Of a stretch of 64,000 nucleotides of DNA, positions 6,291 through 33,330 are shown one piece after another (the stretch's first letter is position 1; the number at the start of each line of letters is the position of its first letter). The notes under the pieces were generated by a model, which worked only from the letters and a program-made list of their open reading frames with translations, was not told where the DNA came from and ran no database searches. Position numbers and translations under genes: made by a program. Origin of the DNA: Terrihabitans soli. Its GTDB lineage: Bacteria > Pseudomonadota > Alphaproteobacteria > Rhizobiales > Methylopilaceae. Location of the stretch: assembly GCF_014191545.1 (NCBI RefSeq), contig NZ_AP023361.1, forward strand, positions 1,020,501-1,084,500, written 5' to 3'.

Positions 6291-6718
6291 CCCGTAAGCT
6301 GCTTTCTTTTATGTGTAGAGACAGGAGCAAGACGCGAACTTCCGTGCGCCGCGCGGGCTGAAGGCCCGCTTGCAAACGCACGACAATCGGTAAGGTTGCC
6401 GAACATTCGCTCCTCGCTCCCCGATCGGAGAGACGCCTGAGCATTGCGATGCAAGTGTCTGAATTAAGGCGCGATTACACGACTGTTCGATGAACGGGCG
6501 TTCATCTCGGACGACACTCTAGCACCTGTTTTTTGCAGGCCCGGCGCCAAGTTTCCACCGGGCCGTACGCAATGTCCCGGAATGTAAGACGCCGGGCGGC
6601 GTCCTATCTATGTCGCACGCCGAAGCGTGCTCTGCCTTAAACGCGCTTGCGGTTGGGCCGGACCGGATCCTAGGTCCCGGTCCGGTTCCTGATTTTCTGC
6701 GGTCCGCGCGCGGGAATT
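6291..6718. other. 428-base intergenic region
   Basis: No convincing gene. It should hold the promoter of the minus-strand OmpA-family gene. Visible structure: a perfect inverted repeat GATGAAC-GGGC-GTTCATC near 6489-6506, which could be an operator, and a hairpin GGACCGG / CCGGTCC near 6660-6685 just past the end of the zinc-ribbon gene, which may act as its terminator although no T-run follows. Confidence 0.4.
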
Positions 6719-7018
6719 TCAGTCGAAATCGAAAATCTCGCCGAGCAGCGATTTCTTGCGGCGGCGCTTGTCATAGCCATAGCCATCGCGATGGCCGCTG
6801 TCGGGGCGGTAGCCGTGATCGGGCCGAAACTCCTGCGGCCGTTCGCGATAAGGCTGCGCTCGAGCCGGCTGCGGTGCGGCGTCGGACCGTTCGATGATCT
6901 TGTCGAGTTCGCCGCGATCGAGCCACACGCCGCGGCATTTCGGGCAGTAGTCGATTTCGATGCCCTGGCGATCGCTCATCGTAAGATCCGTCCCGTCAAT
7001 CGGACATTTCACCCGCAT
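6719..7018 (-). CDS. TFIIB-type zinc-ribbon protein
   Basis: 99 residues. The N-terminal 45 residues form a zf-TFIIB-like domain: CPIDGTDL supplies the first metal-binding Cys and YCPKCRGVWLDRGELDKII supplies the second pair plus the Trp-Leu-Asp-Arg-Gly-Glu-Leu signature of this family. The rest is a low-complexity Pro/Arg/Tyr/His/Asp-rich region ending in a basic KRRRKK patch and acidic tail. Members are common in bacteria but have no firm function; a nucleic-acid or protein-binding role is only a guess. Confidence 0.8.
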   Translation of the reverse strand: MRVKCPIDGTDLTMSDRQGIEIDYCPKCRGVWLDRGELDKIIERSDAAPQPARAQPYRERPQEFRPDHGYRPDSGHRDGYGYDKRRRKKSLLGEIFDFD

Positions 7019-7235
7019 TTCCTCCTGTCACTGAAGACATCACGAGATGGGTTCAGCCGGAGGGCGCGTCAAGCGCGCTTGTATGGACAGATGCGCACAT
7101 TGGCCGGGCGTCTAAAGTACTTCTACGGTGAGTTTCCGAGAAGAGTTCGTGTGTCGCCCGCGCGGCTGAAACCGCCGGCAAACGTCACCCGGCGCGCCGC
7201 AATCGCACGATGACCTCCGGGCTGAGGTCGTCCGC

Positions 7236-8141
7236 TTAGCGGCCGATCCGCTCATCGAGCGCATCGAGGACGCGAGCCGACGTGGCGGGATGGAATTTGC
7301 GGGCAAACAGCGCCGATGTTTGGACAAGCGCCGGCAGATCTTCGAGTCCAAGTGTTTTCGGGTGCGGCCCGCCGGCGCTCCAGTCGATGTAATGAACACC
7401 ATGCAAGGTCGCGGGCAGGGCATCGCCGCGCGTTGCATCCTGCGAGATGACCGTATTGGCGTCGGCTTTGAGAGCCGTCTGTACGAAATGTTCTCCGCGG
7501 TCGCGGGCGCGCGCGATCCAGCGCATGAAGACGGTATTTTCGTCGGCAAAGCGCAGAACGGTTTCGGCGCCTTTGCGCGACAGAGCCCACCACATCGCGC
7601 CGTGATAGATCACATATCCGCGGGGCGGACGACGCGGGATTTTTGCCGCCAGCTTACGGGCAAAGGCAGCCATTTTTGGGACCGGCGAAAGCCTGTCGTT
7701 GAACAGTTCGATGTCTCCGATGTGAAATTTCAGATTGTGATCTTGCGGCGTGGGGCCGTTCCACACGACTTTGCGACCCACGCGGATAAAATCCGTGTCC
7801 TCATTTGCCAGAAGAAAATCGCGGATGTCGCCGAGCGGCTTGATCGGATAATCGGCGGCCGACAGCATGACGAAGCGGCAGGCTCCGGGATAAGTCTGCA
7901 GCGCGTGGCGAAGGCAGTTCAGCACCGCCAGCATATGACGCGAGCCGCCCCATAAAATCGAAACACGCTTGCCGTCGGGAATGAAGTCTGCGTCCTGGAT
8001 GCGGAAGTCTGCGATGTCGGCTTTCTTGTCGATGTGGACGAGCACCCGCGCCCAGGGCGATGCGAGCCGCGAGACCAGCCGCTTGAGCGCCGCCGGATTG
8101 TCATGTGCGCAGATGATGAAAACGACGGCATCAGCGTTCAT
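7236..8141 (-). CDS. GT14 (core-2/I-branching type) glycosyltransferase
   Basis: 301 residues resembling bacterial members of glycosyltransferase family 14, which includes beta-1,6-N-acetylglucosaminyl and xylosyl transferases. The N-terminus reads VVFIICAHDNPAALKRLV, followed by VLVHIDKKAD, SILWGGSRHMLAVLNCL and the family-typical MLSAADYPIKPL, then HGAMWWALSRKGAETVL and a later HYIDW. There is no membrane segment, so it is probably cytoplasmic. The sugar and acceptor are not predictable. It is monocistronic here, and a role in exopolysaccharide or envelope glycan synthesis is inferred. Confidence 0.8.
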   Translation of the reverse strand: MNADAVVFIICAHDNPAALKRLVSRLASPWARVLVHIDKKADIADFRIQDADFIPDGKRVSILWGGSRHMLAVLNCLRHALQTYPGACRFVMLSAADYPIKPLGDIRDFLLANEDTDFIRVGRKVVWNGPTPQDHNLKFHIGDIELFNDRLSPVPKMAAFARKLAAKIPRRPPRGYVIYHGAMWWALSRKGAETVLRFADENTVFMRWIARARDRGEHFVQTALKADANTVISQDATRGDALPATLHGVHYIDWSAGGPHPKTLGLEDLPALVQTSALFARKFHPATSARVLDALDERIGR

Positions 8142-8326
8142 GTTTGCCCGCTATCGCATCGATTTGTTGCAGCTCCCGCATTCGCAGAGTGCGTGCAAAG
8201 TATGACACGCAAAATCCGCGCCGCTGCATGCGCAATTTGCATGGACGAAATGTTCCCGAAACATCGCATTGCTATCGCGCATGGCCGTGTATGGCGGGGG
8301 AGTGGATATTGAGTGGAGGAAATCCA

Positions 8327-8380
8327 ATGCCGCTTCTGATCGCCGAAATTTTTATCGAAGGAAAATGGCCCCGGCGCTGA
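8327..8380 (+). CDS. Possible 17-residue microprotein or leader ORF
   Basis: A very short reading frame (MPLLIAEIFIEGKWPRR) preceded by a strong ribosome-binding site, GGAGGAAAT, at good spacing, and followed 20 bases later by a strong plus-strand terminator. No larger gene follows before that terminator, so this is either a tiny protein, or part of a small transcript, or chance. Most of the surrounding 450-base gap (8142-8592) shows nothing else coding. Confidence 0.3.
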   Translation: MPLLIAEIFIEGKWPRR

Positions 8381-8400
8381 TCGCGCGCCGTCAAACGAAC

Positions 8401-8430
8401 AAGGCTCCGCCTGTTGGCGGAGCCTTTTTT
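8401..8430 (+). terminator. Strong intrinsic terminator
   Basis: AAGGCTCCGCC (8401-8411) pairs with GGCGGAGCCTT (8416-8426) around TGTT, with six T residues at 8425-8430. It ends a plus-strand transcript of unknown start within the gap before the autotransporter gene. Confidence 0.85.
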
Positions 8431-8592
8431 GTGCGCCGCTTTTCGGCATCGTCCGGAGCGATCCGTCGGCCGGCGGCGGTGAGAAGGTGCCAACGTACCA
8501 CCGGTTGCAAATCGGCGCCCCATTTCCCCTTTGTTAAGCATAAACCCGTGTAATCCGCCCCAGGTCACAACCGGTTGCTCGGGGCGGAGGGG

Positions 8593-11325
8593 ATGGACCG
8601 ATTATACGTCGCCGCTCTCGTGCTTTGTTCGGGCCTTGTGTCGAGCGTGCCCGCAAGGGCGCAGCACTATTACGAGAATTTCGCGCTCCGCGGCGAGACC
8701 GCCGCGCCGTCGTTCGATCTCTCGGTGTTTCGAGGGGTGCCGGACGCAGTTTTCTTGCAGGAAATTCGTCGGCTGCAACATCTGAACCCGGCAGCGGCCT
8801 ATGCGCTGGCCGAGGAGGCGATGCGCCTGAGGCCGCATCTTGCCGACGCCTTTGCCGATCCAAGGCCGGTCCTATCCCATCCGGAGCCGGCGCTCGCCGA
8901 ACCGGTTCAGGATTGGATCGAGCCTAAAGGAAAGTTCGAAGGCGGTCTCGTTATGGCCGGCGGGGCGCTCGTGCTTGCCGGAGGCGCTGCGGCGTTCCTG
9001 GCGACCGCAAGCGGCGAGGGAGATGGCTCGGGCGTCGGCGGCGGCTTTACGCGGAGAGTAACGACAGTACTGCCTCCGGTGCCGCCGGGCTGGGAGGAGG
9101 ACGTCGCCGATTGGGAAGACGCCGAATACGGTGTCGACTATTCCAAAGGCCTCATCAATGCCTCGAGCGCCTATGCGCGCGCCGGTACGGGCGACGGGAT
9201 CAATGTCGGGTTGATCGATGGCGCCGTGGACCCGATGCACGATCAATTCTCCGGAAGGTTCGGCGGATGTTTCGATATCCAGTTCGGCAGTTCGAGCACT
9301 TTGCCCTCGGCCTGCGACGACGACCCCGCCGATCACGGCACGCATGTCGCGGGCTCGATTGCCGCCGCGCGCGACGGCGACACGATGTTCGGCGTTGCCT
9401 TCGAGGCCGAACTTTACAGCATGCGTGCGTTCAACAGCGGAGGCGGCTGGGTCGCATCTTCAGCGCGTTTCGACGACGCGATACGTTGGGCCGCTGCAAA
9501 CGATGTCGCCGTCATCAACAACTCTTTCGGAAGCTATACGCACACCGATCGTCCGGCGGACTATAATCTCGGTCATATCGCCGCCGGTTTCGGAACCGCG
9601 CTGGAAGAGGCGCGCGACAACGACATCATCATGGTCTGGGCGGCAGGAAACGATGGCGGTTTCGAGCCCACCGTCGAAGCCGCCTTTCCCCTCTACGATC
9701 CCAGCATGCGCGATATCTGGATCGCCGTGACGTCCGTCGATCCGGACGGTTCGCTCTCTATTTATTCCGATGCCTGCGGCGCGGCGGCGGAATGGTGTCT
9801 TGCCGCGCCCGGCGGATCGGGGCAGGTTGCCGACGATATCATATCGACAATTCCCAATGACAGTTTCGCTGGAAACTTCGGTACGTCCATGGCGGCGCCG
9901 CAAGTGACCGGCGCCGTTGCGATCATGCTGCAGCTGTTCGGGCCGGGAACACCGTCCAATCTGACGCCGCAGGAGATCGTGAAAATCCTCTTCGTCACTG
10001 CCGACAAAAATCTTCCGGGTTATGTCGCCAATGCCGACGGCGTGTCGGATCTGTACGGGCAGGGCCTTCTCGATCTCGATGCGGCGACGACGCCCGACAC
10101 GCACGATCTTGTGTTCACGACCTCCGGCGGCCAATTCTCGAGCCTGTCGAGTTCCGGCATTTCATACGGGCCTGCCTTTGGCGGCGGGATCAGCGCCGCG
10201 CTGTCCGGCAAGACGCTCGCGGTGTTCGACGAATATAACCGCGCCGTCATCATCGATCTCGAGAGCTTCGCCGCGCAGGCGCCCGAGCCGATCGATCTCG
10301 ACCGGGCGCTTGCCAATTTCGGCCAGGGGAACGGCTTTAAAGATGTCGTGACGGAAGGCGGCTTCAAGCTGGCGCTGCGCGGCTCGTTCGGCGAAGAGGG
10401 CGACGGAGTTTCGCTCGGCGGCGAGACGCAGGCGCGCATGTCGGTCGCGCTGACCGATACAGCGACGCTGGAAAGCGGCTACAATATCGATGCTTCTCAA
10501 ATGCTCGGTCTTTACGCCAGCGGGACGGCGGCCCCGGAACTTCTGATCGATCCCGTCGCACTGTCGAGTTCTTATCTCGCCCTTGCCGAAAGCGCGATGA
10601 CGACGGGAATCCGCCGCTCGGGCGAAGACTCGGATCTTGCGCTTATGGTGTTCGGCGGTACCGATTACCGCCCCGAGGAAACCGAACTCGACGCGCGCCT
10701 TTCCGGCGAGGACGAGAAAAACTGGACCTATGGCGTGGCCGCCGAATGGACGGTGCGGCCGGCCGAAGGCTTCAGCCTTGCGCTCAGAAGCGGCGTCATG
10801 ACCGAGGCGGACGAGCTTTTGGGCGCGGAGATGGAAGGCGGCTTCGAGGTGACCGAGACGCAAACGGCCTTTGCCGGCGCAACGGTGACCTACACGCTTG
10901 CGAGCGGACTGTCCGCCGTCGCCGCCTACGATATCGGCATCTCGGCTGTCGCCGCCGAGGACAGCCTGTTTTCCGATTTCAGCAATGTGCTGTCGGACAG
11001 TTTCAGCCTCGGCCTTCTGGGCAAAGGCGGGTTTCAGGAGCGCGACCGCTACGGGTTGATCGTGTCGCAGCCGCTGCGCGTCTTCTCGTCGGAAGCGGAG
11101 ATGCTGCTGCCGCAGGCGCGCAATGCCGACGGCTCGATGAGCTATTCGAGCGAAGATGTCGATATGGCGCCCGAGGATCGCGAGCTGCGCGTGCAGGGCT
11201 TTTATGCCGCCGAAATGGGCGACGGCACGCTGAGTTTCGGCGGGCTGATGCGCTTCAATCCGGGACATGATGCGGATGCCGAGACCGAATGGGTCGGGCT
11301 TGCGAGCTATCAGGGCGGGTTCTGA
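8593..11325 (+). CDS. Subtilisin-like (S8) autotransporter serine protease
   Basis: About 910 residues. A signal peptide (MDRLYVAALVLCSGLVSSVPARA) is followed by a helical pre-region, a Gly/Ala hydrophobic stretch (LVMAGGALVLAGGAAAFL), then a peptidase S8 domain. The catalytic triad is visible: Asp209 in GLIDGAVD, His251 in DHGTHVAG and Ser432 in FGTSMAAP, with the oxyanion-type Asn in WAAGNDGG. The last 350 residues alternate like a beta-barrel and end in Phe, the normal signal for outer-membrane insertion, so this is a type V secreted protease. The ATG at 8593 gives the clean signal peptide, although GGAGG is very close; a TTG at 8575 in frame is the alternative. It lies upstream of, but probably separate from, an exporter gene. 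Confidence 0.85.
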   Translation: MDRLYVAALVLCSGLVSSVPARAQHYYENFALRGETAAPSFDLSVFRGVPDAVFLQEIRRLQHLNPAAAYALAEEAMRLRPHLADAFADPRPVLSHPEPALAEPVQDWIEPKGKFEGGLVMAGGALVLAGGAAAFLATASGEGDGSGVGGGFTRRVTTVLPPVPPGWEEDVADWEDAEYGVDYSKGLINASSAYARAGTGDGINVGLIDGAVDPMHDQFSGRFGGCFDIQFGSSSTLPSACDDDPADHGTHVAGSIAAARDGDTMFGVAFEAELYSMRAFNSGGGWVASSARFDDAIRWAAANDVAVINNSFGSYTHTDRPADYNLGHIAAGFGTALEEARDNDIIMVWAAGNDGGFEPTVEAAFPLYDPSMRDIWIAVTSVDPDGSLSIYSDACGAAAEWCLAAPGGSGQVADDIISTIPNDSFAGNFGTSMAAPQVTGAVAIMLQLFGPGTPSNLTPQEIVKILFVTADKNLPGYVANADGVSDLYGQGLLDLDAATTPDTHDLVFTTSGGQFSSLSSSGISYGPAFGGGISAALSGKTLAVFDEYNRAVIIDLESFAAQAPEPIDLDRALANFGQGNGFKDVVTEGGFKLALRGSFGEEGDGVSLGGETQARMSVALTDTATLESGYNIDASQMLGLYASGTAAPELLIDPVALSSSYLALAESAMTTGIRRSGEDSDLALMVFGGTDYRPEETELDARLSGEDEKNWTYGVAAEWTVRPAEGFSLALRSGVMTEADELLGAEMEGGFEVTETQTAFAGATVTYTLASGLSAVAAYDIGISAVAAEDSLFSDFSNVLSDSFSLGLLGKGGFQERDRYGLIVSQPLRVFSSEAEMLLPQARNADGSMSYSSEDVDMAPEDRELRVQGFYAAEMGDGTLSFGGLMRFNPGHDADAETEWVGLASYQGGF

Positions 11326-18607: not shown

Positions 18608-18806
18608 GTCCCGGACAAGCTGCACGTAGTGCAGCGCCAATCCGGGACCCAGACATAAGCGCGAAGCGCATAATGAACGGCGTTCGAACTCGGATGTTTC
18701 CGAGTTCGATTCCAACATGCTCAAGTCGGGAACACCCGACTTGAGTGCCGTTCTCATATCTGGACCCCGGATCACGCGACACGGCTTCGCCGTGCGCGGT
18801 CCGGGG
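18608..18806. repeat. Array of four hairpins upstream of portal gene
   Basis: First a nested structure: GTCCCGGA (18608-18615) with TCCGGGAC (18641-18648), enclosing GCTGCAC-GTA-GTGCAGC. Second, CGAACTCGGA-TGTT-TCCGAGTTCG (18685-18708). Third, CTCAAGTCGGG-AACA-CCCGACTTGAG (18720-18745). Fourth, a long arm CCCCGGA...TCCGGGG (18765-18806) with an inner CACGG-CTTCG-CCGTG. The second and third have related partners at 26775-26840. No reading frame crosses it with protein-like content. It may be a dispersed palindromic repeat or a structured RNA. Confidence 0.75.
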
Positions 18807-18852
18807 AACACTTCCCACAATCGTTAGAGCATCGATCGAGGGCCGCGTCTTT

Positions 18853-20574
18853 ATGGACGACAAAACCACTCATTCACGGCTGATCGACATGTTCGAGGAG
18901 GCGGAGGAGGCGAGCGCGCAGAGCCGCGACCGCGCCGGGCGCGACCTCGATTATTACGACGGCAAGCAATGGACCGCCGACGAAGCGCGGCTTCTGAAAA
19001 AGCGCGGCCAGCCCGTCATCGCCTGGAACCGCATCCGCGAGAAGGTGGATTATCTGCAGGGCGATGAGCGCAACCGCCGCACCAAACCGCAAGCCCTGCC
19101 GAACACGCCGAGCCACGAACAGGACAGCCATTCGGCAACGGACGCGCTGCAATTCATCTGCCGCCAGAACCGCTATGACGAGACGCGCTCGCGCGTCTGG
19201 GCGGACCTGCTCAAGGCCGGCTGGGGCGGGGTGGAGATCAGCGTCGAGCCGAAGACCAATATGCTGGGCGCGAGTGCGCTGACGGGGCCGGAATTCCGCG
19301 TCATTGTCCGCCGCTGCCAATGGGACCGCATGTTCTGGGACCCGCACTCTTCCGAAGAAGATTTTTCCGACGCCGCCTATAAAGGCATGGTCGTCTGGAT
19401 GGACCGCGAAGAGGCGGTGCGTCATTACGGCGAAGACGCCGCCGAGGTGTTCGACGACACGGTGCAGGCGGTCAATGCAGGCACGAGTTTCGACGACCGG
19501 CCGAAAGGCAGCTGGGCCCGCGCCGGCAAAAGGCAGCGCATCCGTGTCGTGCTGATCTATTTACGCAACTCTGATGGCGGCTGGGATTTCTGCGAATTCA
19601 CCAAAGGCGGCATTCTGCGCGACGGGCCTTCGCCCTTTCTGGACGAAGACGGCAATACCGAGGACCCGTTTGTCTGGCGCTCGGCCTATGTGGACCGCGA
19701 GAACAACCGCTACGGCGTTGTGCGCGACATGATCGATCTGCAGGACGAGATCAACAAACGGCGCTCGAAAGCGCTGCACCATTTCACGGCGCGGCAGACC
19801 TTCGGCAATCAGAAATTCAAGGCCGGCTCGGCCGAAAACAAGAAGCAGCTGGCGCGCCCCGATGGGCATATCGAACTGGCGGGCACCGCGCAGTTCGGCA
19901 CCGATTTCGGCATCATCCCGACCGGCGACCAGGCGGCGGGGCATTTCGAACTGTTACAGCAGGCGACCGCGGCTTTCGAGACCATCGGGCCGAACGCCGC
20001 CATGGTCGGCAAGAAAGGCCGCGCCGAGAGCGGGCGCGCGCTGCTGGCGCAGCAGCAGGGCGGGCAGGTGCAGATGGGGCCGCTGACCGATGCGCTGCGG
20101 CAGCTCGATTATGACGCCTACCGCAAAATCTGGAACCGCGTGCGCCAATACTGGACAAGCGAGACCTGGATCCGCGTGACGGACGATGACCGCACTCTGC
20201 GCTTTGTCGGCCTCAACGAACCGCTCACCGACGCGTTGGGCAATGTGGTGGGGCTGAAAAACGACATCGCGCGCATGGATGTCGATATCGTCATCGAGGA
20301 GGCGCCGGCGGGCGCGACGCTTCTGGACGAGCAATTCGAAATGCTGGTGAACCTCAAACGCATGGATGCGGGCAATGAAATCCCGTTCAAGGCGATTATC
20401 GCAGCAGCGCCGAATCTGCGCGCCAAACAGGACATGCTGCGCATGATCGACGAGAGGGAAGCGCAGCCGCCGAACCCGCTGCAGACCGCGGGCGCCGAGG
20501 CCGAGCTTGAGGGCCTCCGCGCCGAGGCGCGGCTGAAGCATGCGAAAGCGATGCGGGAGGAGGCGGGCTTTTAG
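18853..20574 (+). CDS. Phage portal protein (P22-type)
   Basis: 573 residues, within the usual range for podovirus portals. The ring of this protein forms the DNA entry gate of the capsid. Visible family features: RDLDYYDGKQWTADEARLLKKRGQPVIAWNRI near the N-terminus, then VDYLQGDERNRRTKPQA, YGVVRDMIDLQDEINKRRSKALHH and a C-terminal helical region (EAELEGLRAEARLKHAKAMR). The Met at 18853 is used because upstream residues are encoded by the hairpin array and are not family-like. The following genes are not phage genes, so the normal portal-scaffold-capsid order is broken by about 3.9 kb. Confidence 0.9.
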   Translation: MDDKTTHSRLIDMFEEAEEASAQSRDRAGRDLDYYDGKQWTADEARLLKKRGQPVIAWNRIREKVDYLQGDERNRRTKPQALPNTPSHEQDSHSATDALQFICRQNRYDETRSRVWADLLKAGWGGVEISVEPKTNMLGASALTGPEFRVIVRRCQWDRMFWDPHSSEEDFSDAAYKGMVVWMDREEAVRHYGEDAAEVFDDTVQAVNAGTSFDDRPKGSWARAGKRQRIRVVLIYLRNSDGGWDFCEFTKGGILRDGPSPFLDEDGNTEDPFVWRSAYVDRENNRYGVVRDMIDLQDEINKRRSKALHHFTARQTFGNQKFKAGSAENKKQLARPDGHIELAGTAQFGTDFGIIPTGDQAAGHFELLQQATAAFETIGPNAAMVGKKGRAESGRALLAQQQGGQVQMGPLTDALRQLDYDAYRKIWNRVRQYWTSETWIRVTDDDRTLRFVGLNEPLTDALGNVVGLKNDIARMDVDIVIEEAPAGATLLDEQFEMLVNLKRMDAGNEIPFKAIIAAAPNLRAKQDMLRMIDEREAQPPNPLQTAGAEAELEGLRAEARLKHAKAMREEAGF

Positions 20575-20657
20575 AAGATCAGATCGATGACGCCGAAGAC
20601 GACCAGAAGGCCGATGACGAAGATGATGCCGACGGCCCACAGCAGAAGTTTGATCAT
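20571..20657 (-). CDS. 28-residue single-pass membrane protein
   Basis: A tiny protein, MIKLLLWAVGIIFVIGLLVV plus eight residues, entirely hydrophobic. AAGGAG lies 6 bases ahead of the ATG, a good ribosome site. It overlaps the portal gene's stop by 4 bases on the opposite strand and is divergent from the SDR gene. Tiny membrane proteins of this sort are common in rhizobia; the role is unknown. Confidence 0.55.
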   Translation of the reverse strand: MIKLLLWAVGIIFVIGLLVVFGVIDLIF

Positions 20658-20731
20658 GGGGTGCTCCTTGACGTCCTCAGTAACGTCCGAGGACGGCGTT
20701 TGGCTCCGCTGAGCCTTTCTCCGGACGGCAA

Positions 20732-20756
20732 GGAACCATGTTTTCCGGGAGGTGTT
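20732..20756 (+). promoter_or_regulatory. Probable general stress promoter for SDR-cupin pair
   Basis: GGAAC (20732-20736), 16 bases, TGTT (20753-20756): close to EcfG GGAAC-N16/17-CGTT and a full match to GGAAC-N18-TT. The SDR start is 34 bases further on. Confidence 0.5.
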
Positions 20757-20790
20757 CGTTTTTCGAGCATCAATCCGAAGGACATGACCC

Positions 20791-21696
20791 ATGGCCGAGA
20801 CCCTGACCGCCGCCCCGACCACCAAACTGGCCGAGAACTATCCCGCGCCGCCGTTCAAGGAGCAGCGCCAGCCCTGGCCGGGCCTTGCCTCGAAAATGGA
20901 GCCGCGGCCGGACCATGGCGAGACAAGCTATAAAGGCTCGGGAAAGCTGAAGGGCAAACGCGCGCTGATCACCGGCGGTGATAGCGGCCTTGGCCGGGCT
21001 GTTGCAATTGCTTACGCGCGAGAGGGCGCGTCCGTCGTGATCAATCATCTTGCCGCCGAGGAGGAAGACGCGAAGGAAGTTATCGACCTTCTGACCCGCG
21101 AGGGCCTTGAGATTTCCTCCATAGCCGGCGATCTGCGCGACGAAGCCTTCTGCCGGGAACTTGTGAGAGAGGCGGCGAAGGAACTCGGCGGGCTCGACAT
21201 TCTGATCAACAACGCCGCGCGCCAGCAGACGCGGCCGTCGATCGCCGATATCACAAGCGATGATTTCGACGCGACGATGAAGACCAATGTCTATGCGCCG
21301 TTCTTCCTGACCAAAGCGGCTGTGGAGCTGATGACGGAAGGCGCCGTCATCATCAATACATCCTCCGAACAGGCGGCCGATCCTTCGGAAGATCTCGTGG
21401 ACTACGCCATCACGCGCGCCGCCATGCTGAACTTCACAAAGTCCATGGCCAAACAGCTCGGGCCGAAAGGCATCCGCGTCAATGCGGTGGCGCCCGGACC
21501 GTTCTGGACGCCGCTGCAGGTTTCGGGCGGGGCGACGATGGAGAAGCTGAAGAAGTTCGGCTCGAAAAGCGTGCTCGGGCGTCCCGGCCAACCGGCGGAA
21601 ATTGCGGCTTTGTATGTCGCCGCCGCCGATCCGACGCTCGGCTTTTCGAGCGGGCAGATTTTCGCGGCGACCGGCGGCGGGCCGCAGCCTTCGTGA
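20791..21696 (+). CDS. SDR-family oxidoreductase (YghA-like)
   Basis: 301 residues of the extended-N-terminus SDR group that includes E. coli YghA, NAD(P)-dependent reductases often linked to stress. The leader PAPPFKEQRQPWPGLASKM is typical. The Rossmann motif is GGDSGLGRAVA; NNAARQQ is the NNAG-like element. The catalytic region reads SSEQAADPSEDLVDYAITRAA: Ser and Tyr are present but the expected Lys of YxxxK is Arg. A conserved VAPGPFWTPLQ follows. It forms a two-gene unit with the cupin gene (4-base overlap) and sits inside the phage gene cluster. Confidence 0.85.
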   Translation: MAETLTAAPTTKLAENYPAPPFKEQRQPWPGLASKMEPRPDHGETSYKGSGKLKGKRALITGGDSGLGRAVAIAYAREGASVVINHLAAEEEDAKEVIDLLTREGLEISSIAGDLRDEAFCRELVREAAKELGGLDILINNAARQQTRPSIADITSDDFDATMKTNVYAPFFLTKAAVELMTEGAVIINTSSEQAADPSEDLVDYAITRAAMLNFTKSMAKQLGPKGIRVNAVAPGPFWTPLQVSGGATMEKLKKFGSKSVLGRPGQPAEIAALYVAAADPTLGFSSGQIFAATGGGPQPS

Positions 21697-22055
21697 CCAA
21701 AGCCATGAAGGTGCGAAAATTTTCCATCGCCGATGCGGCGCTGCAAAGATCGCCGGGACAGGACGCCGAGATTTTCGCCGGCAATCTTGTCGATGAAAGG
21801 GACGGTGCGGCTGTCACCATCGGCTATGGGCGCTATGCGCCCGAGCAGAGTCTTTCGGAGACCATGGCGGTCGACGACATCATGATCGTTCTCGAAGGCC
21901 GGATCTCGGTGTCGTCGGACGGTCCAACGGTGACGGCGGGGCCGGGCGAGATCGTACATATGCCCAAGGGCAGCGAGGTGATTATCCGTTCGCACGAAGA
22001 GGGTGCGCTCACGGCCTATGTGACCTATCCTCATTGGCGGACCGCACGCGCTTAA
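21693..22055 (+). CDS. Cupin-domain protein (EutQ-like)
   Basis: 120 residues if it begins at the GTG overlapping the SDR stop (GTGA), or 116 from the ATG at 21705. It has a single small beta-barrel cupin pattern: GYGRYAPEQSLSETMAVDDIMIVLEGRI and GPGEIVHMPKGSEVIIRSHE. The usual metal-binding His residues of the first motif are not evident. It resembles the C-terminal cupin of EutQ-type proteins. Coupled translation with the SDR suggests they act together; the reaction is unknown. Confidence 0.75.
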   Translation: MTKAMKVRKFSIADAALQRSPGQDAEIFAGNLVDERDGAAVTIGYGRYAPEQSLSETMAVDDIMIVLEGRISVSSDGPTVTAGPGEIVHMPKGSEVIIRSHEEGALTAYVTYPHWRTARA

Positions 22056-22128
22056 CGAGTGGTAAACTTCTGGGGCCGCATTGTAGCGGTGAGGGACGCC
22101 GGGGGGCGTCTGCCAGAAGGCACACGTG

Positions 22129-22440
22129 ATGAACCTCCCTAATGAAGAAATCTGTCCCGTTCCGCTGTCATTTCTCTCCGATCTGATGCGCACGCAGGGC
22201 GTTGCCGCCGGCGCGCTGATCAACACGCTCGATCATCCGCTGCGCGCGCAGCTTGCTCTGTTCTGTTACCGGCGGGGCCATCTGCGCCAGCTCGCACAGG
22301 CGATCGCCGCGCAATGCACGCGCGGGGAATTGCGCGAAGTCGGCCTGATTGCCGGCGATGCGCTGTTTGTCGCTTCGCGCGACACGACGGCTTCAACGAG
22401 TGGCTCGAAAATCAGCCTGGCGCGGATCCAGGCGGCTTGA
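22129..22440 (+). CDS. Hypothetical protein
   Basis: 103 residues, start ATG at 22129 (a GTG precedes directly). A hydrophobic helix pair (LSDLMRTQGVAAGALINTL; LRAQLALFCYRRGHLRQLAQ) and a later AGDALFVASRD. No family recognised. It lies 73 bases after the cupin gene and is convergent with the low-GC TIGR04141 gene. Confidence 0.5.
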   Translation: MNLPNEEICPVPLSFLSDLMRTQGVAAGALINTLDHPLRAQLALFCYRRGHLRQLAQAIAAQCTRGELREVGLIAGDALFVASRDTTASTSGSKISLARIQAA

Positions 22441-22489
22441 GATTTGGCCAGCCTTGGCGAGCGCATCGGCGCTGATTGACATTCAGAAG

Positions 22490-24241
22490 TTAGTTGGCCT
22501 TCCGAGGTGCTTTCGCTCTCTTGAACGACATCTGAGAGACTGGAATGAAACGCAAAACGATATCTTTAAACTTGCAGACGTGTTGAAGATGCTCACTCAT
22601 CAGCTTCAATTCAAACTGTGCAATTAGAGGGAGGTCGTGCTTCGACGGCAGGGCTTTCCGATTATCGCAGAGAAGCCACACACAGACCCGATAGTCCGAG
22701 CCTAGTACGTCTTTTAGGTCCGGTTTGATGTGGTTCAGATACTTATCTCTTGTAGCGCTTGTTGAAGCGGCGATTCGTTCTCGGATATCGCGCAGAAATG
22801 TTTCGTCTCTTAAAAATCCTTCGCAATAAAATCGTGTTTGCGCAAAGAGATATGTGACCGCTGAAGATCCCTTAAGTGGCTTGCAATTAATAATCCTCAT
22901 CGTTCCATCGTCGGTCAGATCGAGGATATCGCAAAATTCTTTGTCCTTACGTCCAGTTCCGACTCTAAGTTTCGCTTGATCAAAAAGTATCGCCGTGGGA
23001 CGACGTTTGCAGACCTCTTGGTTGAACAGCTCCTCTTTGTTCTTCATTTCGGCTACGTTGCCTATCGCGATATTCTTGTATTCCTGCTCACATGCTTCTT
23101 CGCGAACATGCGTCTTAACAAAAGTCTCTATCGCCTGCCTGAAATCTCTGCTGACGATCTTCCATTCGCCGTCTGACAAAACATAATACTCGTCGTCGAG
23201 CGCCGACTCAAAAATCAAGCAATCGTACAGGTACCACCATTTCTGGGAGATGACGCGCTCTTCTGAATGTGAGTATGCAAAGATGCGACGTTTCCTGAGA
23301 CCTTCTAGTGTCAGATTATTCAGGCCAACTTCATCAGCTAGCTGCTCCGTATCCAAATACGCGTAGATATTATTGTCGTTCTTGGCGTTGTCTGAATAAC
23401 TGAAGCTGTACTCATCGTTTGGAATGAACTCAGGCACCCACAGCTGCACGTCGTCAAACCTCCTTTCCTTGAGAGTGGCGAGCAGAATTTTATCAAGAAG
23501 CAAACTTTTCTCTTCGGGCGCTGGCTGGAAGTTACGATAGTTTGGGAACAGGTCGACGTAGTCGTTACGATCATATGCGTCCAAAAACGCCCTACAGCGT
23601 TTGACCAGACCAACCCAAGAAAGCTTTTCCCTGCCAAGAATTTTAATTGTCAAATGATCTCGGCCCTGAAGCGTTACGCCTTGTTCGCCTTTGATATGAG
23701 CGGAAATGAATTTGAGATCTTCGCCGTCGCTCAGTGCAAAGGAGAATGCATCCGAGGGGCGACTGACCTGTCTTGCGATGCTTGTAGGTACCAATGAGTT
23801 GCTGTGGGTGTGGGTTTGACGAATTTCCTCGTTCCCGCACATATTCATCGCGGTCTTTATGCCGAAGTCTCTTTCTATCGATTTGCGATTTAACGCTGTT
23901 CCAGCGCTTCGACCGAAAACTGAAAGTACCCAACGTCCGGCTATCTCGATGCCGAGAATACCGTTGGCGTTCGGGCTTTTTATAGCTGCGAGTGACTTCT
24001 GTTCGTCGTCAGCCAACTGAGCGTTTATGAACTCAAGCCACGCAGGTGTTTTCTTCGTGGTGATAGATTCGAAGTACAAAAATCGACAGGCGTGATCTTC
24101 CACTCGAAACGAGTGGTTCGAATAAGCGTTGCGCTCTCTAAGGTCGCTTTCCCAGTCGATAACCTCGTCGAAGGTCAGAGCTGGTTTGGCCAAGTAGAAC
24201 GAAATTTGTCCGATCTCGGCGTCTTCTAAAGGCGCTTCCAA
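22490..24241 (-). CDS. TIGR04141/DUF6119 family sporadically distributed protein
   Basis: 583 residues from a TTG at 24241, preferred because GGGAGG lies 5 bases ahead; a GTG at 24286 would add 15 residues. The sequence follows this family throughout: an early FLYFESITTKKTPAW, then WVLSVFGRS...SIERDFGIKTAMNM, QVSRPSDAFSF, and a C-terminal segment KEFCDILDLTDDGTMRIINC-KPLKGSSAVTYLFAQ that resembles a PD-(D/E)xK-like core (inference). The family is scattered among bacteria, often on mobile DNA, without an established function. Base composition is clearly lower in GC than the neighbours and codon use differs, pointing to recent transfer. It lies between portal and scaffold genes on the opposite strand, like phage cargo; a defence role is plausible but unproven. 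Confidence 0.75.
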   Translation of the reverse strand: MEAPLEDAEIGQISFYLAKPALTFDEVIDWESDLRERNAYSNHSFRVEDHACRFLYFESITTKKTPAWLEFINAQLADDEQKSLAAIKSPNANGILGIEIAGRWVLSVFGRSAGTALNRKSIERDFGIKTAMNMCGNEEIRQTHTHSNSLVPTSIARQVSRPSDAFSFALSDGEDLKFISAHIKGEQGVTLQGRDHLTIKILGREKLSWVGLVKRCRAFLDAYDRNDYVDLFPNYRNFQPAPEEKSLLLDKILLATLKERRFDDVQLWVPEFIPNDEYSFSYSDNAKNDNNIYAYLDTEQLADEVGLNNLTLEGLRKRRIFAYSHSEERVISQKWWYLYDCLIFESALDDEYYVLSDGEWKIVSRDFRQAIETFVKTHVREEACEQEYKNIAIGNVAEMKNKEELFNQEVCKRRPTAILFDQAKLRVGTGRKDKEFCDILDLTDDGTMRIINCKPLKGSSAVTYLFAQTRFYCEGFLRDETFLRDIRERIAASTSATRDKYLNHIKPDLKDVLGSDYRVCVWLLCDNRKALPSKHDLPLIAQFELKLMSEHLQHVCKFKDIVLRFIPVSQMSFKRAKAPRKAN

Positions 24242-24498
24242 GTCAGCCTCCCGACCACCAATATTACCGGGGGTTGAGCGGCGCACAAGGTGGGTTGTGT
24301 ATTTCGTCGGGTAAAAATCCCGCCGCCGGGGTTACGGGCGATCGCGCCGCCTGCGCGTAAAAATGAGGGCAGGGTGGTGCCGACCTTCTGAACGGGCAAT
24401 CACCGCCGCCGGGTGCTGATTTCGCCGAAACCGGAAACATCCGGCTTCGGTGCCGGGCGTACGTGCATTCCTTCCACGCATAGAGGAACCCGACTGAC

Positions 24499-25209
24499 AT
24501 GAAAGATCTGGACGCCATCATGGCGGACCGGGACGGCGAAGCCGTGCCGGATGCGCCGGCAGAGTTTAACCCCGAGACCGCCGAGCCTGTTGCTTCTCCC
24601 GAAGACACAGGCGAAGCGCGGCACGGCACCGTTCCGCATCAGGCGCTTCACGCCGAGAGGCAGAAAGCCCGACGGCTGGAAGAGGAAAATGCGGAGCTGC
24701 GCCAGCATCTCGACGGCATTGCGACAAAGCTTTCGCAGCGAGAGCGCACGCCCGAACTCTGGGACGACCCCGATCTTTACCTCGACCACCGCATGGCGCC
24801 GCTGGCCAGCGAGATCGGCGAAATGAAGGAATTCGTCTCCGAAACGCTCGCGGTCCAGACCTATGGCTCCGATGCGGTGGAGGCTGCGAAACGAAACGCC
24901 GAAGACCTGGCACGGTCGGGGGCGCCTGAGTTTCAGGGCCTGTGGGCGCGGCTTTCCCGCTCGCGCCACCCGATGGACGAACTTGTCAGATGGGACCGGG
25001 AGCAGAGCGCGCTCAGAAAGTACGGCGCAGATCCGGACGCCTATATCGCGTCCGAGATCGAGAACCGGCTGTATGGGCGCGCTTCTCCTCACGCAGCGCC
25101 TGCCGCGCGGCAACAGCTTCCTTCCTCTTTCGCCGCCGCCCGCTCCAGCGGGCCGCGCGGCAGCGGAGGCGGCGGGCCGCGCTCGCTTTCCGAAATCATG
25201 AACAGATGA
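24499..25209 (+). CDS. Phage scaffolding-type protein
   Basis: 236 residues placed directly before the capsid gene, the normal position for a scaffold. It is acidic at the N-terminus (ADRDGEAVPDAPAEFNPETA), has a coiled-coil region (QALHAERQKARRLEEENAEL...LRQHLDGIATKLSQ, residues about 50-85), and ends in a Gly/Ser/Arg stretch and SLSEIMNR. Such scaffolds guide capsid assembly and then leave. The assignment rests on position and coiled coil more than on a shared motif. Confidence 0.7.
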   Translation: MKDLDAIMADRDGEAVPDAPAEFNPETAEPVASPEDTGEARHGTVPHQALHAERQKARRLEEENAELRQHLDGIATKLSQRERTPELWDDPDLYLDHRMAPLASEIGEMKEFVSETLAVQTYGSDAVEAAKRNAEDLARSGAPEFQGLWARLSRSRHPMDELVRWDREQSALRKYGADPDAYIASEIENRLYGRASPHAAPAARQQLPSSFAAARSSGPRGSGGGGPRSLSEIMNR

Positions 25210-25220
25210 GGTAACAGGAC

Positions 25221-26315
25221 ATGGCCGAGACACGCGCCACTCCCGCTTTGTCGCCCACGATCTGGGACGACGATTTTTCAACCGAGTTTTACCAGACCAA
25301 TCCGTTCGCCGCCTATTCCGGGACCGGCACCAACAACCCGATCGTGATGAAGGAAGATTTTGCCGCCCGGCGCGGCAATGGCATCACCTTCGAATTCATC
25401 ACCAATCTCAAGCGCGGCACGATCTTCGACCGCCAGCCTTTGCGCGGCCATGAAGACAAGCTCGGCGAGTATGGCGACAAGGTTTCGTGGCGCTTCCGCA
25501 AGAAGGGCATTTCGATCCATGAACTGGATGGCGACAATGCCGCCATCGACCTGCGCGAAGCTTCGCGCGGTGCGCTTCGAATTTGGGCCGACGAAGACGT
25601 CAAATGGGAGACCATCGACCGGCTCGGCGATGTCGGCGAGAATTGCGACGTGCCGTTCGAGATCGCAACGCCGACGCAGAAAAGCGCCTGGGTGGAGAAC
25701 AATCAGGACCGCGTTCTCTTCGGCGCGGCGCGCGCGAACTACTCGACCAATTTCGCCACCGCCGCCGGCAATGTCGATGCGACAAACGACAAGCTCACGC
25801 GGCGTTCGCTGTCCCTCCTGAAGCGGCTGGCGCTCTCCGCCTCGCCGCGCATCACGCCGATCCGCGTGCAGGAGAAGAACAATCGCCGCTATTTCGTGGC
25901 CTTCGCGCATCCCTTCGTGTTCCGCGATTTCGTCGCGGACGCCGAAGAGGTGACGTCCAATGTCGCGGTGATCGAGCGCAATGAGGGCATTTTCCTCGGC
26001 GGCGACCGCGAATGGGACGGCGTCATCCTGCACGAAGTCGACGACATGCCGGTCTATACGGGCATCGGCAATGGCGGCATCGATATCTCGCCGGTGCACC
26101 TGCTGGGCCAGGAGGCGCTCGGCTTCGCCATCAAGCAGCGCTACAAATCGCGCACCCAGGAAGACGATTACGGCCAGGTTCAGGGCCTCGGCATGATCGG
26201 CAAATGGGGCATGAAAAAGCTCTGCTACAATGCCGGCTATGGCGGCGACGATGCGAGCGTGCACGGCAAGCATCGCGGCGTCGTGACCGGCTTTTTCTCC
26301 GCCGTCGGCGACTGA
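25221..26315 (+). CDS. Major capsid protein (N4-gp56 family)
   Basis: 364 residues matching the N4-gp56-type major capsid family, the shell subunit of N4-like and related short-tailed phages. Family-like features: the N-terminal SPTIWDDDFSTEFYQTNPFAAY, GNGITFEFITNLKRG, then HELDGDNAAIDL, KRLALSASPRITPIR, and WDGVILHEVDDMP with the C-terminal QALGFAIKQRY-like segment (here EALGFAIKQRYKSR). It starts 11 bases after the scaffold stop, likely one operon. No protease gene was seen, consistent with this capsid type. Confidence 0.88.
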   Translation: MAETRATPALSPTIWDDDFSTEFYQTNPFAAYSGTGTNNPIVMKEDFAARRGNGITFEFITNLKRGTIFDRQPLRGHEDKLGEYGDKVSWRFRKKGISIHELDGDNAAIDLREASRGALRIWADEDVKWETIDRLGDVGENCDVPFEIATPTQKSAWVENNQDRVLFGAARANYSTNFATAAGNVDATNDKLTRRSLSLLKRLALSASPRITPIRVQEKNNRRYFVAFAHPFVFRDFVADAEEVTSNVAVIERNEGIFLGGDREWDGVILHEVDDMPVYTGIGNGGIDISPVHLLGQEALGFAIKQRYKSRTQEDDYGQVQGLGMIGKWGMKKLCYNAGYGGDDASVHGKHRGVVTGFFSAVGD

Positions 26316-31587: not shown

Positions 31588-32496
31588 CTATAGTTGGATA
31601 TCGTTCTCGTCGATAAAATCGATGATCTGCCGGTCCTCGACAACATCCGAGTCGATGCTTTCCAAAGCCGTCCGCAGGCGGTGCTGATGGGCGTCGCGAG
31701 TTGCGGGAGAGACAGGCCCCCTGCGGATCTTCTCTTCAAACTCTTCGAGCGATTTTGTGTAATAGTGGTTGAGCTGTAGATTTTGTGACGCGTAGAAATC
31801 GGGAGTTTTTCGCTGCTTGCGCGTGAACACCTTTCCAACGTCGTTGCAGGTCATCTCACCGTATTGCCGCGTTTCGAACTGGTGAACGCTGACTTCCGTG
31901 ACCTCGCAGGGGTCGACAACGCATTTGAAATTCGTCGCATTTTTTTTTCGACTGATCGGATCGGTCGCACGTTGGACGAAGTTTCTGAGAATACCACCAT
32001 CGGGTTTAGCTTTGTGACCACTGGTCCCGAACATGTGCCAGGGGAGGGAGACATTCGGAAATCCGCCTGTACCTTTGAGGGCCTCTTCGACAGTGTTTCC
32101 CAATTTCGGCAGCAGGAACTCGTCGACGTCAATCAGCGCCATCCATCGGAAGGCGGCGCCGAAGTTTAGAATTGCATGAGCGAAAGCGACCACCTGGCTA
32201 TTGAACTGCTGGCCGTCCGACATGTCGATCATGCGCCCGGCCCAAGGCACCAGCGTCAATTCCGCGTCGGACAATCTTGCTTTGATTATGCTCGCTGTCC
32301 CATCGGTTGAGCCGTCATCGTAAATGATGAAATGGCGGATTCCGACGGCCTGATGAAAGGCAAGCCACTCGTCGATGTAGCTCTCTTCATCCTTCAGCAT
32401 TGTCACGATGGCGACCCCGTGGCGGTTGGGTCGAGGCGCGGGAGGATCGATGCGAAGATGTTTGGAGAAGGGCAGGCGCTTTTTAAACAGTCTCAT
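31588..32496 (-). CDS. Glycosyltransferase (GT92/GT2-like) in phage tail region
   Basis: 302 residues. GVAIVTMLKDEESYIDEWLAF is the usual opening of GT92-type (DUF23) and related GT-A enzymes, then IIYDDGSTDGT, and the metal-binding WMALIDVDEFLLP with a DxD-type centre. VSLPWHMFGTSGH and NHYYTKSLEEFEEK are also family-like. It is on the minus strand, in contrast to the structural genes, with lower GC. Likely role: adding a sugar to a cell-surface glycan, as in phage serotype conversion; this is inference. Confidence 0.75.
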   Translation of the reverse strand: MRLFKKRLPFSKHLRIDPPAPRPNRHGVAIVTMLKDEESYIDEWLAFHQAVGIRHFIIYDDGSTDGTASIIKARLSDAELTLVPWAGRMIDMSDGQQFNSQVVAFAHAILNFGAAFRWMALIDVDEFLLPKLGNTVEEALKGTGGFPNVSLPWHMFGTSGHKAKPDGGILRNFVQRATDPISRKKNATNFKCVVDPCEVTEVSVHQFETRQYGEMTCNDVGKVFTRKQRKTPDFYASQNLQLNHYYTKSLEEFEEKIRRGPVSPATRDAHQHRLRTALESIDSDVVEDRQIIDFIDENDIQL

Positions 32497-32524
32497 TACG
32501 TGATTGGCACCTAAACCGAGAGCG

Positions 32525-32548
32525 TTCGGGCCAATAGATTGGCCCGAA
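32525..32548. repeat. Perfect inverted repeat between two glycosyltransferase genes
   Basis: TTCGGGCCAAT (32525-32535) pairs with ATTGGCCCGAA (32538-32548) with AG between: an 11-bp palindrome with almost no loop. Neither strand has a clear T-run after it, so a protein-binding site is as likely as a terminator. Confidence 0.5.
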
Positions 32549-32619
32549 AAAGCTAAAAGGCCATAGGATACACGAGAGCTAGGGTCAACCTTGAGACCTA
32601 GTTTTGGAGCCGCAAACCA

Positions 32620-33258
32620 CTAATCCTCAGCGGCCCAGGCCTGTAGATCGCGGTGGCTGGTCATCTTCGTAATGAGTCTTTCTCCGGCGCGCCGCAGGCG
32701 GTGGAGCCTGAGCGACGCCCTTTCAAGAAACGTTATTTCTGAGGCTACGTGGCGGACAACGCGTCCCTCCGAGATCCACTTGTCGAAGAGCGCACGTTCT
32801 GCAGTCCAGTCGTGACCATACTCACCGGCATGGCCAAAACCGAACAGGTGAAGAATGGCGTCGGGATAAAGTTCCATCAGATGAAATGCGCCGGCTAAAC
32901 CGGTGCTTGGTTTCATTCCTTCTTCGGACTTTAGCCGCCGCAACTGCTCGACACAGGCAGGAGCGTATCCGACAACCTTCAAGGGCTTATCGATAACGCC
33001 GGTCGCCTCACTCTTAAGGGCGTCTACGTCTTTCCGCTTGTAATTGACGATCCATATTTGCTTGGCCGAGCGATAGGCTCCTGTATGGAAGCCGTCGGTG
33101 AACGCAAGCCGCCAAGTGTGCATGACAAGTACGTCTGTACGTCTTCCCGCCAGGCCGAAAGTCTTGGCACGGTTAAAGCGCATTACGAGATCGTACTGGT
33201 CAATGACGCGAGAGAATTCGCGGCCGACTCTTCCATTTCCAACAACTGCGATACGCAT
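32620..33258 (-). CDS. Sialyltransferase-like (GT29-type) protein
   Basis: 212 residues from the Met at 33258 (MRIAVVGNGRVGREF). The pattern VVGNGRVGREFSRVIDQYDL followed by VMRFNRAKTFGLAGRRTDVL parallels the large sialylmotif of GT29, and GMKPSTGLAGAFHL with LHLFGFGHAG parallels the small motif; a later His-rich HDWTAER fits the end. Similar phage and bacterial proteins are annotated as GT29-like, though the sugar may not be sialic acid. It sits on the minus strand ahead of the tail collar gene (divergent). Confidence 0.65.
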   Translation of the reverse strand: MRIAVVGNGRVGREFSRVIDQYDLVMRFNRAKTFGLAGRRTDVLVMHTWRLAFTDGFHTGAYRSAKQIWIVNYKRKDVDALKSEATGVIDKPLKVVGYAPACVEQLRRLKSEEGMKPSTGLAGAFHLMELYPDAILHLFGFGHAGEYGHDWTAERALFDKWISEGRVVRHVASEITFLERASLRLHRLRRAGERLITKMTSHRDLQAWAAED

Positions 33259-33330
33259 AAAGCGGTTTGTATTCCAAATAAAAGCCGCCGTGCAAGCATT
33301 TTGCCAATTCAATCAATTTCTGGAGCATCC

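What the first reader, a model, noticed from the sequence alone, without database searches (positions are those of the whole stretch)
22129..24286. Low-GC TIGR04141/DUF6119 gene carried as cargo between portal and scaffold
The 583-residue minus-strand gene differs in composition from its surroundings, belongs to a family known for sporadic distribution, and sits at a break in the phage operon. Its C-terminal segment has an acidic/Lys pattern that could be a nuclease-like core. Position and transfer signs fit an anti-phage or exclusion gene, but the family's activity is not established.
Basis: partly seen in the sequence, partly recalled or inferred. Interest (0 to 1): 0.7.

Follow-up and report, generated by a model that had tools for sequence, protein, structure and literature searches.

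The report
Prophage-borne DNA-clamp-like nuclease gene
A gene of unknown function tucked into a leftover virus in a bacterial chromosome is predicted to make a DNA-gripping, DNA-cutting protein, and distant relatives of it are often found inside bacterial anti-virus systems, which suggests that it is itself an anti-virus weapon.

Summary
A low-GC minus-strand DUF6119/TIGR04141 gene (0.479 against a window mean of 0.613) lies in a roughly 3.8-kb insertion between the portal and the scaffold-position gene of a P22-type prophage remnant. Two related prophages lack the insertion. The likely start is TTG at 24241 (583 aa). The family is rare: 9 of 289 genomes of the class, 1 of 50,697 phage records, 21 of 72,556 plasmids. 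AlphaFold2 (pLDDT 87) predicts an N-terminal module whose best PDB matches are RdgC, then Iml3 and CENP-L, with lambda RexA weaker. The C-terminal domain matches PD-(D/E)xK nucleases (HamA, EndoMS, CdiA-CT, Card1, McrBC). All Z-scores are below 8. E418, D436, E450, D453, K469 and Q483 are kept in 40 of 40 sequences, but the usual acid two residues before the lysine is H, Q or N. Distant members lie in type I restriction operons (10 of 45 genome loci, about 0.2 expected, not independent; 6 of 13 annotated plasmid loci). The window's own clade shows no such link (0 of 13). Best reading: a self-contained DNA-binding nuclease acting against phages or other invading DNA. I found no paper on the family. 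Activity and trigger are untested.

The parts
22490..24241 (-). DUF6119/TIGR04141 gene, 583 aa from TTG (or 598 aa from GTG at 24286; residue numbers in this report count from the GTG)
   Evidence: PF19614 275 bits, TIGR04141 230 bits, GGGAGG before the TTG
23516..24223 (-). N-terminal module, residues 22-257, RdgC/Iml3/CENP-L-like by predicted fold
   Evidence: AlphaFold2 pLDDT 90.4 for this part alone; first nine VIA rows are RdgC, Iml3 and CENP-L, Z 7.7 to 5.0
23099..23515 (-). Middle region, residues 258-396, fold not identified (barely tested)
   Evidence: Model; conserved L282, P285, C356, E360, W375
22529..23098 (-). C-terminal PD-(D/E)xK-like nuclease domain, residues 397-586
   Evidence: HamA Z 7.5, EndoMS 7.1, CdiA-CT 6.6, Card1 5.7, McrBC 4.8
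22838..23035 (-). Stretch with the candidate catalytic residues E418, D436, E450, D453, N467, K469, Q483
   Evidence: All but N467 identical in 40 of 40 sequences that reach this part
20575..24372 (.). Insertion between portal and scaffold-position genes, relative to the prophage in L069
   Evidence: DNA similarity to L069 resumes at 24373 (46 bp, 87%)
20791..21696 (+). SDR oxidoreductase gene in the same insertion (host-type gene)
   Evidence: PF13561 172 bits; SDR matches in 21 of 21 genomes searched
21693..22055 (+). Cupin (EutQ-like) gene in the same insertion
   Evidence: PF06249 41 bits
18745..20574 (+). P22-type portal gene, left flank
   Evidence: PF16510 333 bits, phrog_156
24499..25209 (+). 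ORF in scaffold position, right flank
   Evidence: No Pfam hit; position before the capsid gene
25221..26315 (+). Major capsid gene
   Evidence: PF13252 84 bits, phrog_334

Best explanation
The gene encodes a self-contained DNA-targeting nuclease carried as cargo by a prophage remnant and used against other phages or invading DNA. Shown by prediction: a two-part protein with an N-terminal RdgC/Iml3/CENP-L-like module and a C-terminal PD-(D/E)xK-like domain whose candidate catalytic residues are kept in every sequence examined. Shown by comparison: rare, low in GC, absent from sister prophages, and in other branches of the family placed in type I restriction operons and beside other defence genes. 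Inferred: the N-terminal module grips DNA, perhaps as a dimer as described for RdgC and RexA; some feature of infection (replicating, unmodified or damaged DNA) licenses it; the C-terminal domain then cuts DNA, destroying the invader or the infected cell. In restriction operons it would be an extra effector beside HsdR.
For: Fold: model pLDDT 87.1, pTM 0.81; all 13 rows among the first 20 that cover the C-terminal part are nucleases I know as PD-(D/E)xK type, and all 7 covering the N-terminal part are RdgC, Iml3 or CENP-L; the N-domain alone gives the same top nine rows. Residues: E418, D436, E450, C452, D453, K469, Q483 identical in 40 of 40. Context: hsdM and hsdR in 10 of 45 genome loci against about 0.2 expected from 52 HsdM_N matches in 44 genomes of about 199 Mb; RM genes in 6 of 13 annotated plasmid loci, NACHT, TIR, Shedu/TIR or methylase in 4 more. 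Mobility: insertion absent from two related prophages; gene poorer in GC than its locus in 11 of 11 homologues; prophage terminase or integrase within 3 kb of L016, L017, L018, L022.
Against: All VIA scores are below 8, where only a common arrangement may be shared; Foldseek gave no PDB match at E 0.001 or better. No sequence relation to RdgC or RexA (hhalign probability 0.3% and 0.2%). The acid two before the lysine is H, Q or N in 40 of 40. 35 of 45 genome loci show no hsdM, and the RM-linked ones are related to each other. The window's clade has no RM genes nearby (0 of 13). Two of 13 annotated plasmid loci are metabolic and one is ambiguous. No PADLOC match. No activity data.
Confidence: 0.62

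Rival explanations
1. A helper subunit of type I restriction systems (for instance a targeting or end-processing factor) that is orphaned in the window and may do little there.
For: In several loci the gene lies between hsdS and hsdR with overlapping ends; RM linkage occurs in two separate places of the tree.
Against: 0 of 13 loci of the window's clade and 35 of 45 genome loci in all carry no hsdM, yet the catalytic set is kept in them.
Confidence: 0.13
2. A RexA-like exclusion or lysogeny-control protein that works by binding DNA, with the C-terminal domain inactive or structural.
For: N-terminal fold list includes RdgC, Iml3, CENP-L and, weakly, RexA; the ExK acid is missing; prophage location.
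Against: Seven C-terminal residues are invariant in 40 of 40, which is unusual for a dead domain; RexA matched only at Z 3.8 with rmsd 13.2.
Confidence: 0.1
3. A DNA repair or recombination nuclease with no role in conflict.
For: EndoMS and a Pyrococcus repair nuclease are among the best C-terminal matches, and RdgC is a recombination protein.
Against: Sporadic and mobile: 9 of 289 class genomes, cargo in a prophage, RM and other defence neighbours.
Confidence: 0.08
4. A relic without function in a decaying prophage.
For: The prophage looks rearranged: a terminase-like gene lies 18 kb upstream of the portal.
Against: The frame is intact and all residues that are invariant elsewhere are kept.
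Confidence: 0.05

Closest known systems
DUF6119 (PF19614) / TIGR04141 'sporadically distributed protein'
   Same: Full-length match, well over both cut-offs
   Different: Nothing; the family itself has no assigned function in these libraries
HamA of Hachiman (DUF1837, nuclease)
   Same: Best PDB match of the C-terminal domain, Z 7.5 and 7.3
   Different: No DUF1837 match in Pfam; HamA has a D-E(X)K motif (PMC12278908, passages), here H/Q/N-x-K; extra N-terminal module; a HamB-type helicase partner was not searched for
RdgC, Iml3/CENP-L and lambda RexA fold group
   Same: Best PDB matches of the N-terminal module (RdgC Z 7.7, 197 residues aligned); RexA, RdgC, IML3 and CHL4 are reported as one fold group (PMC11077077, passages)
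   Different: No sequence relation detected; RexA match weak (Z 3.8, rmsd 13.2); fused here to a nuclease-like domain
Type I restriction-modification operons
   Same: Distant relatives are encoded inside or just beside them
   Different: The window gene and the 13 loci of its clade are not linked to one

Membership tests
DUF6119 / TIGR04141 | Score over the curated cut-off, across the model | tested here: met
   275.4 bits against 27; 229.7 against 35
PD-(D/E)xK nuclease superfamily | Core fold (helix, strands, helix, strand) of the C-terminal domain | tested here: inconclusive
   All 13 C-terminal rows among the first 20 are nucleases known to me as PD-(D/E)xK type, but Z is 7.5 or less
PD-(D/E)xK nuclease superfamily | D...(D/E)xK motif with an acid two residues before the lysine | tested here: not met
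   D453 and K469 in 40 of 40, but position 467 is H 30, Q 6, N 4; variants of this kind are recalled for Mrr-like enzymes, not tested
PD-(D/E)xK nuclease superfamily | Metal-dependent DNA cleavage | not testable with these tools
   Needs purified protein
RdgC / RexA | Two-domain fold shared by RdgC, RexA, Iml3 and CENP-L | tested here: inconclusive
   First nine rows of the N-domain search, Z 7.7 to 5.0; RexA 3.8
RdgC / RexA | Sequence homology | tested here: not met
   hhalign probability 0.3% against ten RdgC sequences and 0.2% against lambda RexA
Hachiman HamA | DUF1837 match | tested here: not met
   PF19614 was the only Pfam family at E 0.1 or better
Hachiman | HamB helicase encoded next to it | not tested
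   No search for HamB was made
Type I RM accessory gene | Linkage to hsdM, hsdS, hsdR | tested here: not met
   True of 10 of 45 genome loci but of 0 of 13 in the window's clade; none of the window ORFs given to Pfam near the gene is an Hsd subunit
Known defence systems of PADLOC-DB 2.0.0 | HMM match | tested here: not met
   0 families at E 1 or better

The most novel reading that the evidence does not exclude
A family not described in the papers searched: a DNA clamp of the RdgC/RexA/CENP-L fold joined to a nuclease, forming a one-protein phage-exclusion enzyme that works alone in prophages and plasmids and has been taken up at least twice as an extra effector by type I restriction operons.
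Probability: 0.36. Interest if true: 0.75.

Novelty: new variant of a known kind. Interest (0 to 1): 0.6.

Why it matters
DUF6119/TIGR04141 is named only for its patchy distribution. A predicted two-module anatomy, with placement of some branches in restriction operons and beside other defence genes, turns it into a directly testable one-gene defence candidate. If the N-terminal module really has the RdgC/RexA fold, the protein would combine DNA clamping, as in Rex-type exclusion, with DNA cutting in one chain. It would also be a candidate addition to defence-gene catalogues; PADLOC-DB 2.0.0 gives no match.

Tried and rejected
Sequence search of the PDB gave one match at E 1, ignored. Foldseek gave no PDB match at E 0.001 or better for the whole model or the N-domain. 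For the whole model its first rows were bacteriophytochromes with probability 0.18 or less and TM-scores near 0.1, judged spurious; HamA came at rank 18 (E 0.023, probability 0.84). For the N-domain Iml3 came first (E 0.021, probability 0.47). Against viral models one hit passed E 0.001 (a beta clamp, probability 0.20), rejected; a HamA-type phage protein appeared at E 0.13. Profile comparison with RdgC and RexA failed, so the N-domain claim rests on predicted fold only. The viral-contig scan with the single protein found nothing; the later scans of viral and genome contigs with a six-sequence alignment each used one short motif and are not exhaustive. No convincing direct repeat marks the insertion. 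Promoter-like sites were 4 against 1.5 expected and terminator-like 8 against 5.3, not interpreted. The SDR gene is of a common host type, so I did not tie it to the finding.

Rows dropped: of the 49 loci L012-L060, 40 went into alignment A2 with the window; left out were L030, L031, L034, L041, L045, L047, L049, L058 and L059, as fragments, oversized frames or apparent near-duplicates (judged and the hit lists, not tested one by one). The plasmid survey opened 17 of 21 records; H13, H17, H19 and H21 were not opened because their hit rows resembled H12, H16, H18 and H20; 4 of the 17 have no gene table there. The flanks opened differ (8 to 15 kb). In one search the query that I labelled HsdS_c is a 446-aa protein without a Pfam match; hits to it in L043, L045 and L083 are not counted as restriction genes, and neither is a 25% HsdR-like hit 8 kb away in L027. 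The HsdM hits in L053-L055 are only 31% identical, but an HsdR-type protein lies beside them. The GC comparison covers 11 homologues (L005 plus ten of the 13 clade loci; L017, L022 and L023 not measured). I did not classify the neighbours of all 45 genome loci for other defence genes. 'Not in print' rests only; the library lacks most subscription journals.

Full report
OBSERVATION. The gene is real and as described. An open frame of 598 codons (GTG) runs from 24286 to 22490 on the minus strand; a TTG at 24241 with GGGAGG just upstream is the likelier start and gives 583 residues. It matches DUF6119 (275 bits) and TIGR04141 (230 bits) nearly end to end, and phrog_18579 of unknown function. Its GC is 0.479 against 0.613 (sd 0.031) for blocks of the same length in the window. 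It is the only match in its 3.11-Mb genome. The 17 other genomes of its genus and family that were searched have none (G001-G017); 3 of 101 relatives have one, itself included, and 9 of 289 genomes drawn from the class, itself included.

THE SITE. The flanks are a P22-type portal gene and, after an ORF in the scaffold position, a major capsid gene. Two related prophages were found by their portal genes (66% and 64% identity). In the 19.5 kb examined of each, neither gives a match to the SDR, cupin or DUF6119 protein. In L069 portal stop and next ORF are about 140 bp apart, and a 46-bp stretch of that spacer is 87% identical to window 24373-24418, some 80 bp before the window's scaffold-position ORF. 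So about 3.8 kb (20575-24372) is extra in the window; its right edge is sharp, its left edge is set only by the end of the portal gene. The prophage looks rearranged: a terminase-like gene (61% identical over 196 residues to the ORF before the portal of L068; named by eye) lies at -994 to 598, 18 kb upstream of the portal.

RELATIVES. Relatives are in 1 of 50,697 phage records, 21 of 72,556 plasmids, 45 genome loci and 4 viral-contig loci; the last two scans used one short motif and are not exhaustive. The best matches are about 50% identical, in Rhizobium, Mesorhizobium, Ensifer, Novosphingobium and an alphaproteobacterial MAG. A FastTree tree of 41 sequences, midpoint-rooted, puts the window in a clade of 14 (support 0.987) and within it with L012, L013, L014, L015 and L022 (support 1.0). 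In 11 of 11 close homologues measured (L005 and ten of the 13 clade loci) the gene is poorer in GC than its own locus, by 0.05 to 0.25.

ANATOMY. AlphaFold2 on a 41-sequence alignment gave a confident model (pLDDT 87.1, pTM 0.81). The second-look aligner found two sets of matches. For the C-terminal part: HamA of Hachiman (Z 7.5, 7.3), EndoMS (7.1, 6.7), a Pyrococcus repair nuclease (6.9), CdiA-CT toxins (6.6, 5.5), Card1 (5.7, 5.3), OkrAI (5.1), McrBC (4.8) and EcoO109I (4.8, 4.5). That these are PD-(D/E)xK-type nucleases is partly recalled. For residues 25-243: RdgC (7.5, 6.8), Iml3 and CENP-L (5.7 to 5.2) and, lower, lambda RexA (3.8). Predicting residues 22-257 alone (pLDDT 90.4) reproduced this: nine top rows of RdgC, Iml3 and CENP-L (7.7 to 5.0), then tunnel metalloenzymes at 4.3, with RexA at 3.8 and an rmsd of 13.2. 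All these scores are below 8, where the tool warns that only a common arrangement may be shared, and profile comparison finds no sequence relation to RdgC or RexA. The RexA paper (PMC11077077; passages read) describes RexA, RdgC, IML3 and CHL4 as one fold group, with a RexA to RdgC DALI Z of 4.4, and non-specific DNA binding by RexA and RdgC. The match list here is therefore coherent, but it stays a fold inference. The middle region (258-396) was barely tested.

ACTIVE SITE. E418, D436, E450, C452, D453, K469 and Q483 are the same in 40 of 40 sequences that reach this part; one of the 41 rows is truncated. E418 opens a helix, D453 precedes a strand, K469 lies in the next strand, Q483 in the following helix, an order like that of PD-(D/E)xK enzymes. 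The usual acid at 467 is H (30), Q (6) or N (4); the window has N. This departs from the defining motif; HamA, by contrast, has D-E(X)K (PMC12278908, passages). Mrr-like enzymes with Q there are known to me only from memory. Invariance of the rest speaks for retained catalysis but does not prove it.

NEIGHBOURS. In 10 of 45 genome loci hsdM and hsdR lie in the fetched stretch (L026, L044, L046, L048, L049, L050, L052, L053, L054, L055). The 44 of these genomes that are held contain 52 HsdM_N matches in about 199 Mb, so about 0.2 would be expected in 44 stretches of at most 22 kb. The linked loci are related to each other, so independent events are fewer: on the tree RM linkage occurs in two separate places. 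Pfam and PADLOC confirm HsdM, HsdS and HsdR in L010 and L026, and Pfam a YgjP-like metallopeptidase after them. DUF6119 sits between hsdS and hsdR with overlapping or touching ends in L008, L076, L078 and L079; in L026 and L081 it follows the peptidase; in L080 it stands divergently beside hsdR. Of 17 plasmid neighbourhoods opened (of 21), 13 have gene tables. Type I RM genes are in 6; a NACHT gene is adjacent in one, TIR in one, Shedu and TIR in one, an N-6 DNA methylase with AAA and patatin genes in one. One is ambiguous and two are metabolic, C-P lyase and hydrogenase. The four without tables show no Hsd genes by tblastn.

THE WINDOW'S CLADE. None of its 13 fetched loci has an Hsd gene, and no fixed partner was seen. 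L018 carries the gene 2.8 kb before a terminase large-subunit gene, with a ParB/methyltransferase gene between; L022 directly after an integrase gene; L016 and L017 within 3 kb of integrase genes. L012 lies near a protein with weak, sub-threshold STAND/NACHT matches. An exo/endonuclease-phosphatase gene precedes it in L005 and L015.

INTERPRETATION. The most economical account is a mobile, self-contained DNA-binding nuclease used in conflicts between genomes. Shown: family, rarity, cargo position, predicted two-module fold, invariant candidate catalytic residues, association of other branches with defence genes. Inferred: DNA binding and dimerisation of the N-terminal module, cleavage by the C-terminal one, the trigger, and whether the host is spared. 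I put 0.62 on an anti-phage or anti-invader DNA nuclease; rivals are an RM helper (0.13), a non-cutting RexA-like excluder (0.10), a repair nuclease (0.08) and a relic (0.05).

PRIOR ART. Full-text searches for DUF6119, TIGR04141 and 'sporadically distributed protein' returned one paper, on wheat MADS-box genes, in which the term occurs once (listing only). DefensePredictor (PMC13092281; one passage) lists five newly implicated DUFs, not this one. A BREX survey (PMC12839542) gave no hit for RdgC, RexA, DUF61 or TIGR04 (find only). A search joining RdgC, RexA and restriction-fold terms listed five papers, none opened. PMC12799240 was seen in passages only. Absence from this library does not show absence from print.

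Noticed in passing
L099, L100, L102, L104; L041 9458-11917: Long DUF6119 proteins (about 770 to 885 aa) whose N-termini look like signal peptides by eye, with several copies in one small genome (G391); L041 is from a Candidatus Paracaedibacteraceae MAG. They may be secreted versions in intracellular bacteria.
   Followed up: partly
window -994 to 598 (L070 9006-10598) and 17685-18745: The terminase-like gene of the prophage lies 18 kb upstream of the portal, with host-type genes between; a small-terminase gene at 17685 is not followed by a large one.
   Followed up: partly
L043 8517-9860, L045 8478-9863, L046 8523-9863, L048 6914-8254, L049 8520-9860, L083 5719-7059: A 446-aa protein without a Pfam match directly precedes DUF6119 in six loci, with hsd genes in L046, L048 and L049 but not in L043, L045 or L083: a possible two-gene unit.
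   Followed up: partly
L014 5042-5512 and L029 11592-12068: A similar 156-158 aa protein with a CPCG motif follows DUF6119 in two distant branches; no Pfam match for the L014 copy.
   Followed up: partly
L004 (BK061476.1) 5636-10676: In the Pseudomonas phage record DUF6119 lies between two annotated integrase genes near the record's end, so it may belong to a neighbouring island rather than to the phage.
   Followed up: no
window 31588-33312: Two minus-strand genes in the phage region with lower GC (0.54) than their surroundings, glycosyltransferase-like by eye; no PADLOC match.
   Followed up: no
window 18745-18882 and G000:C1:2105265-2105402: The first 46 codons of the portal ORF match a second place in the genome at 50%; they may be an upstream extension and not part of the portal protein.
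   Followed up: no
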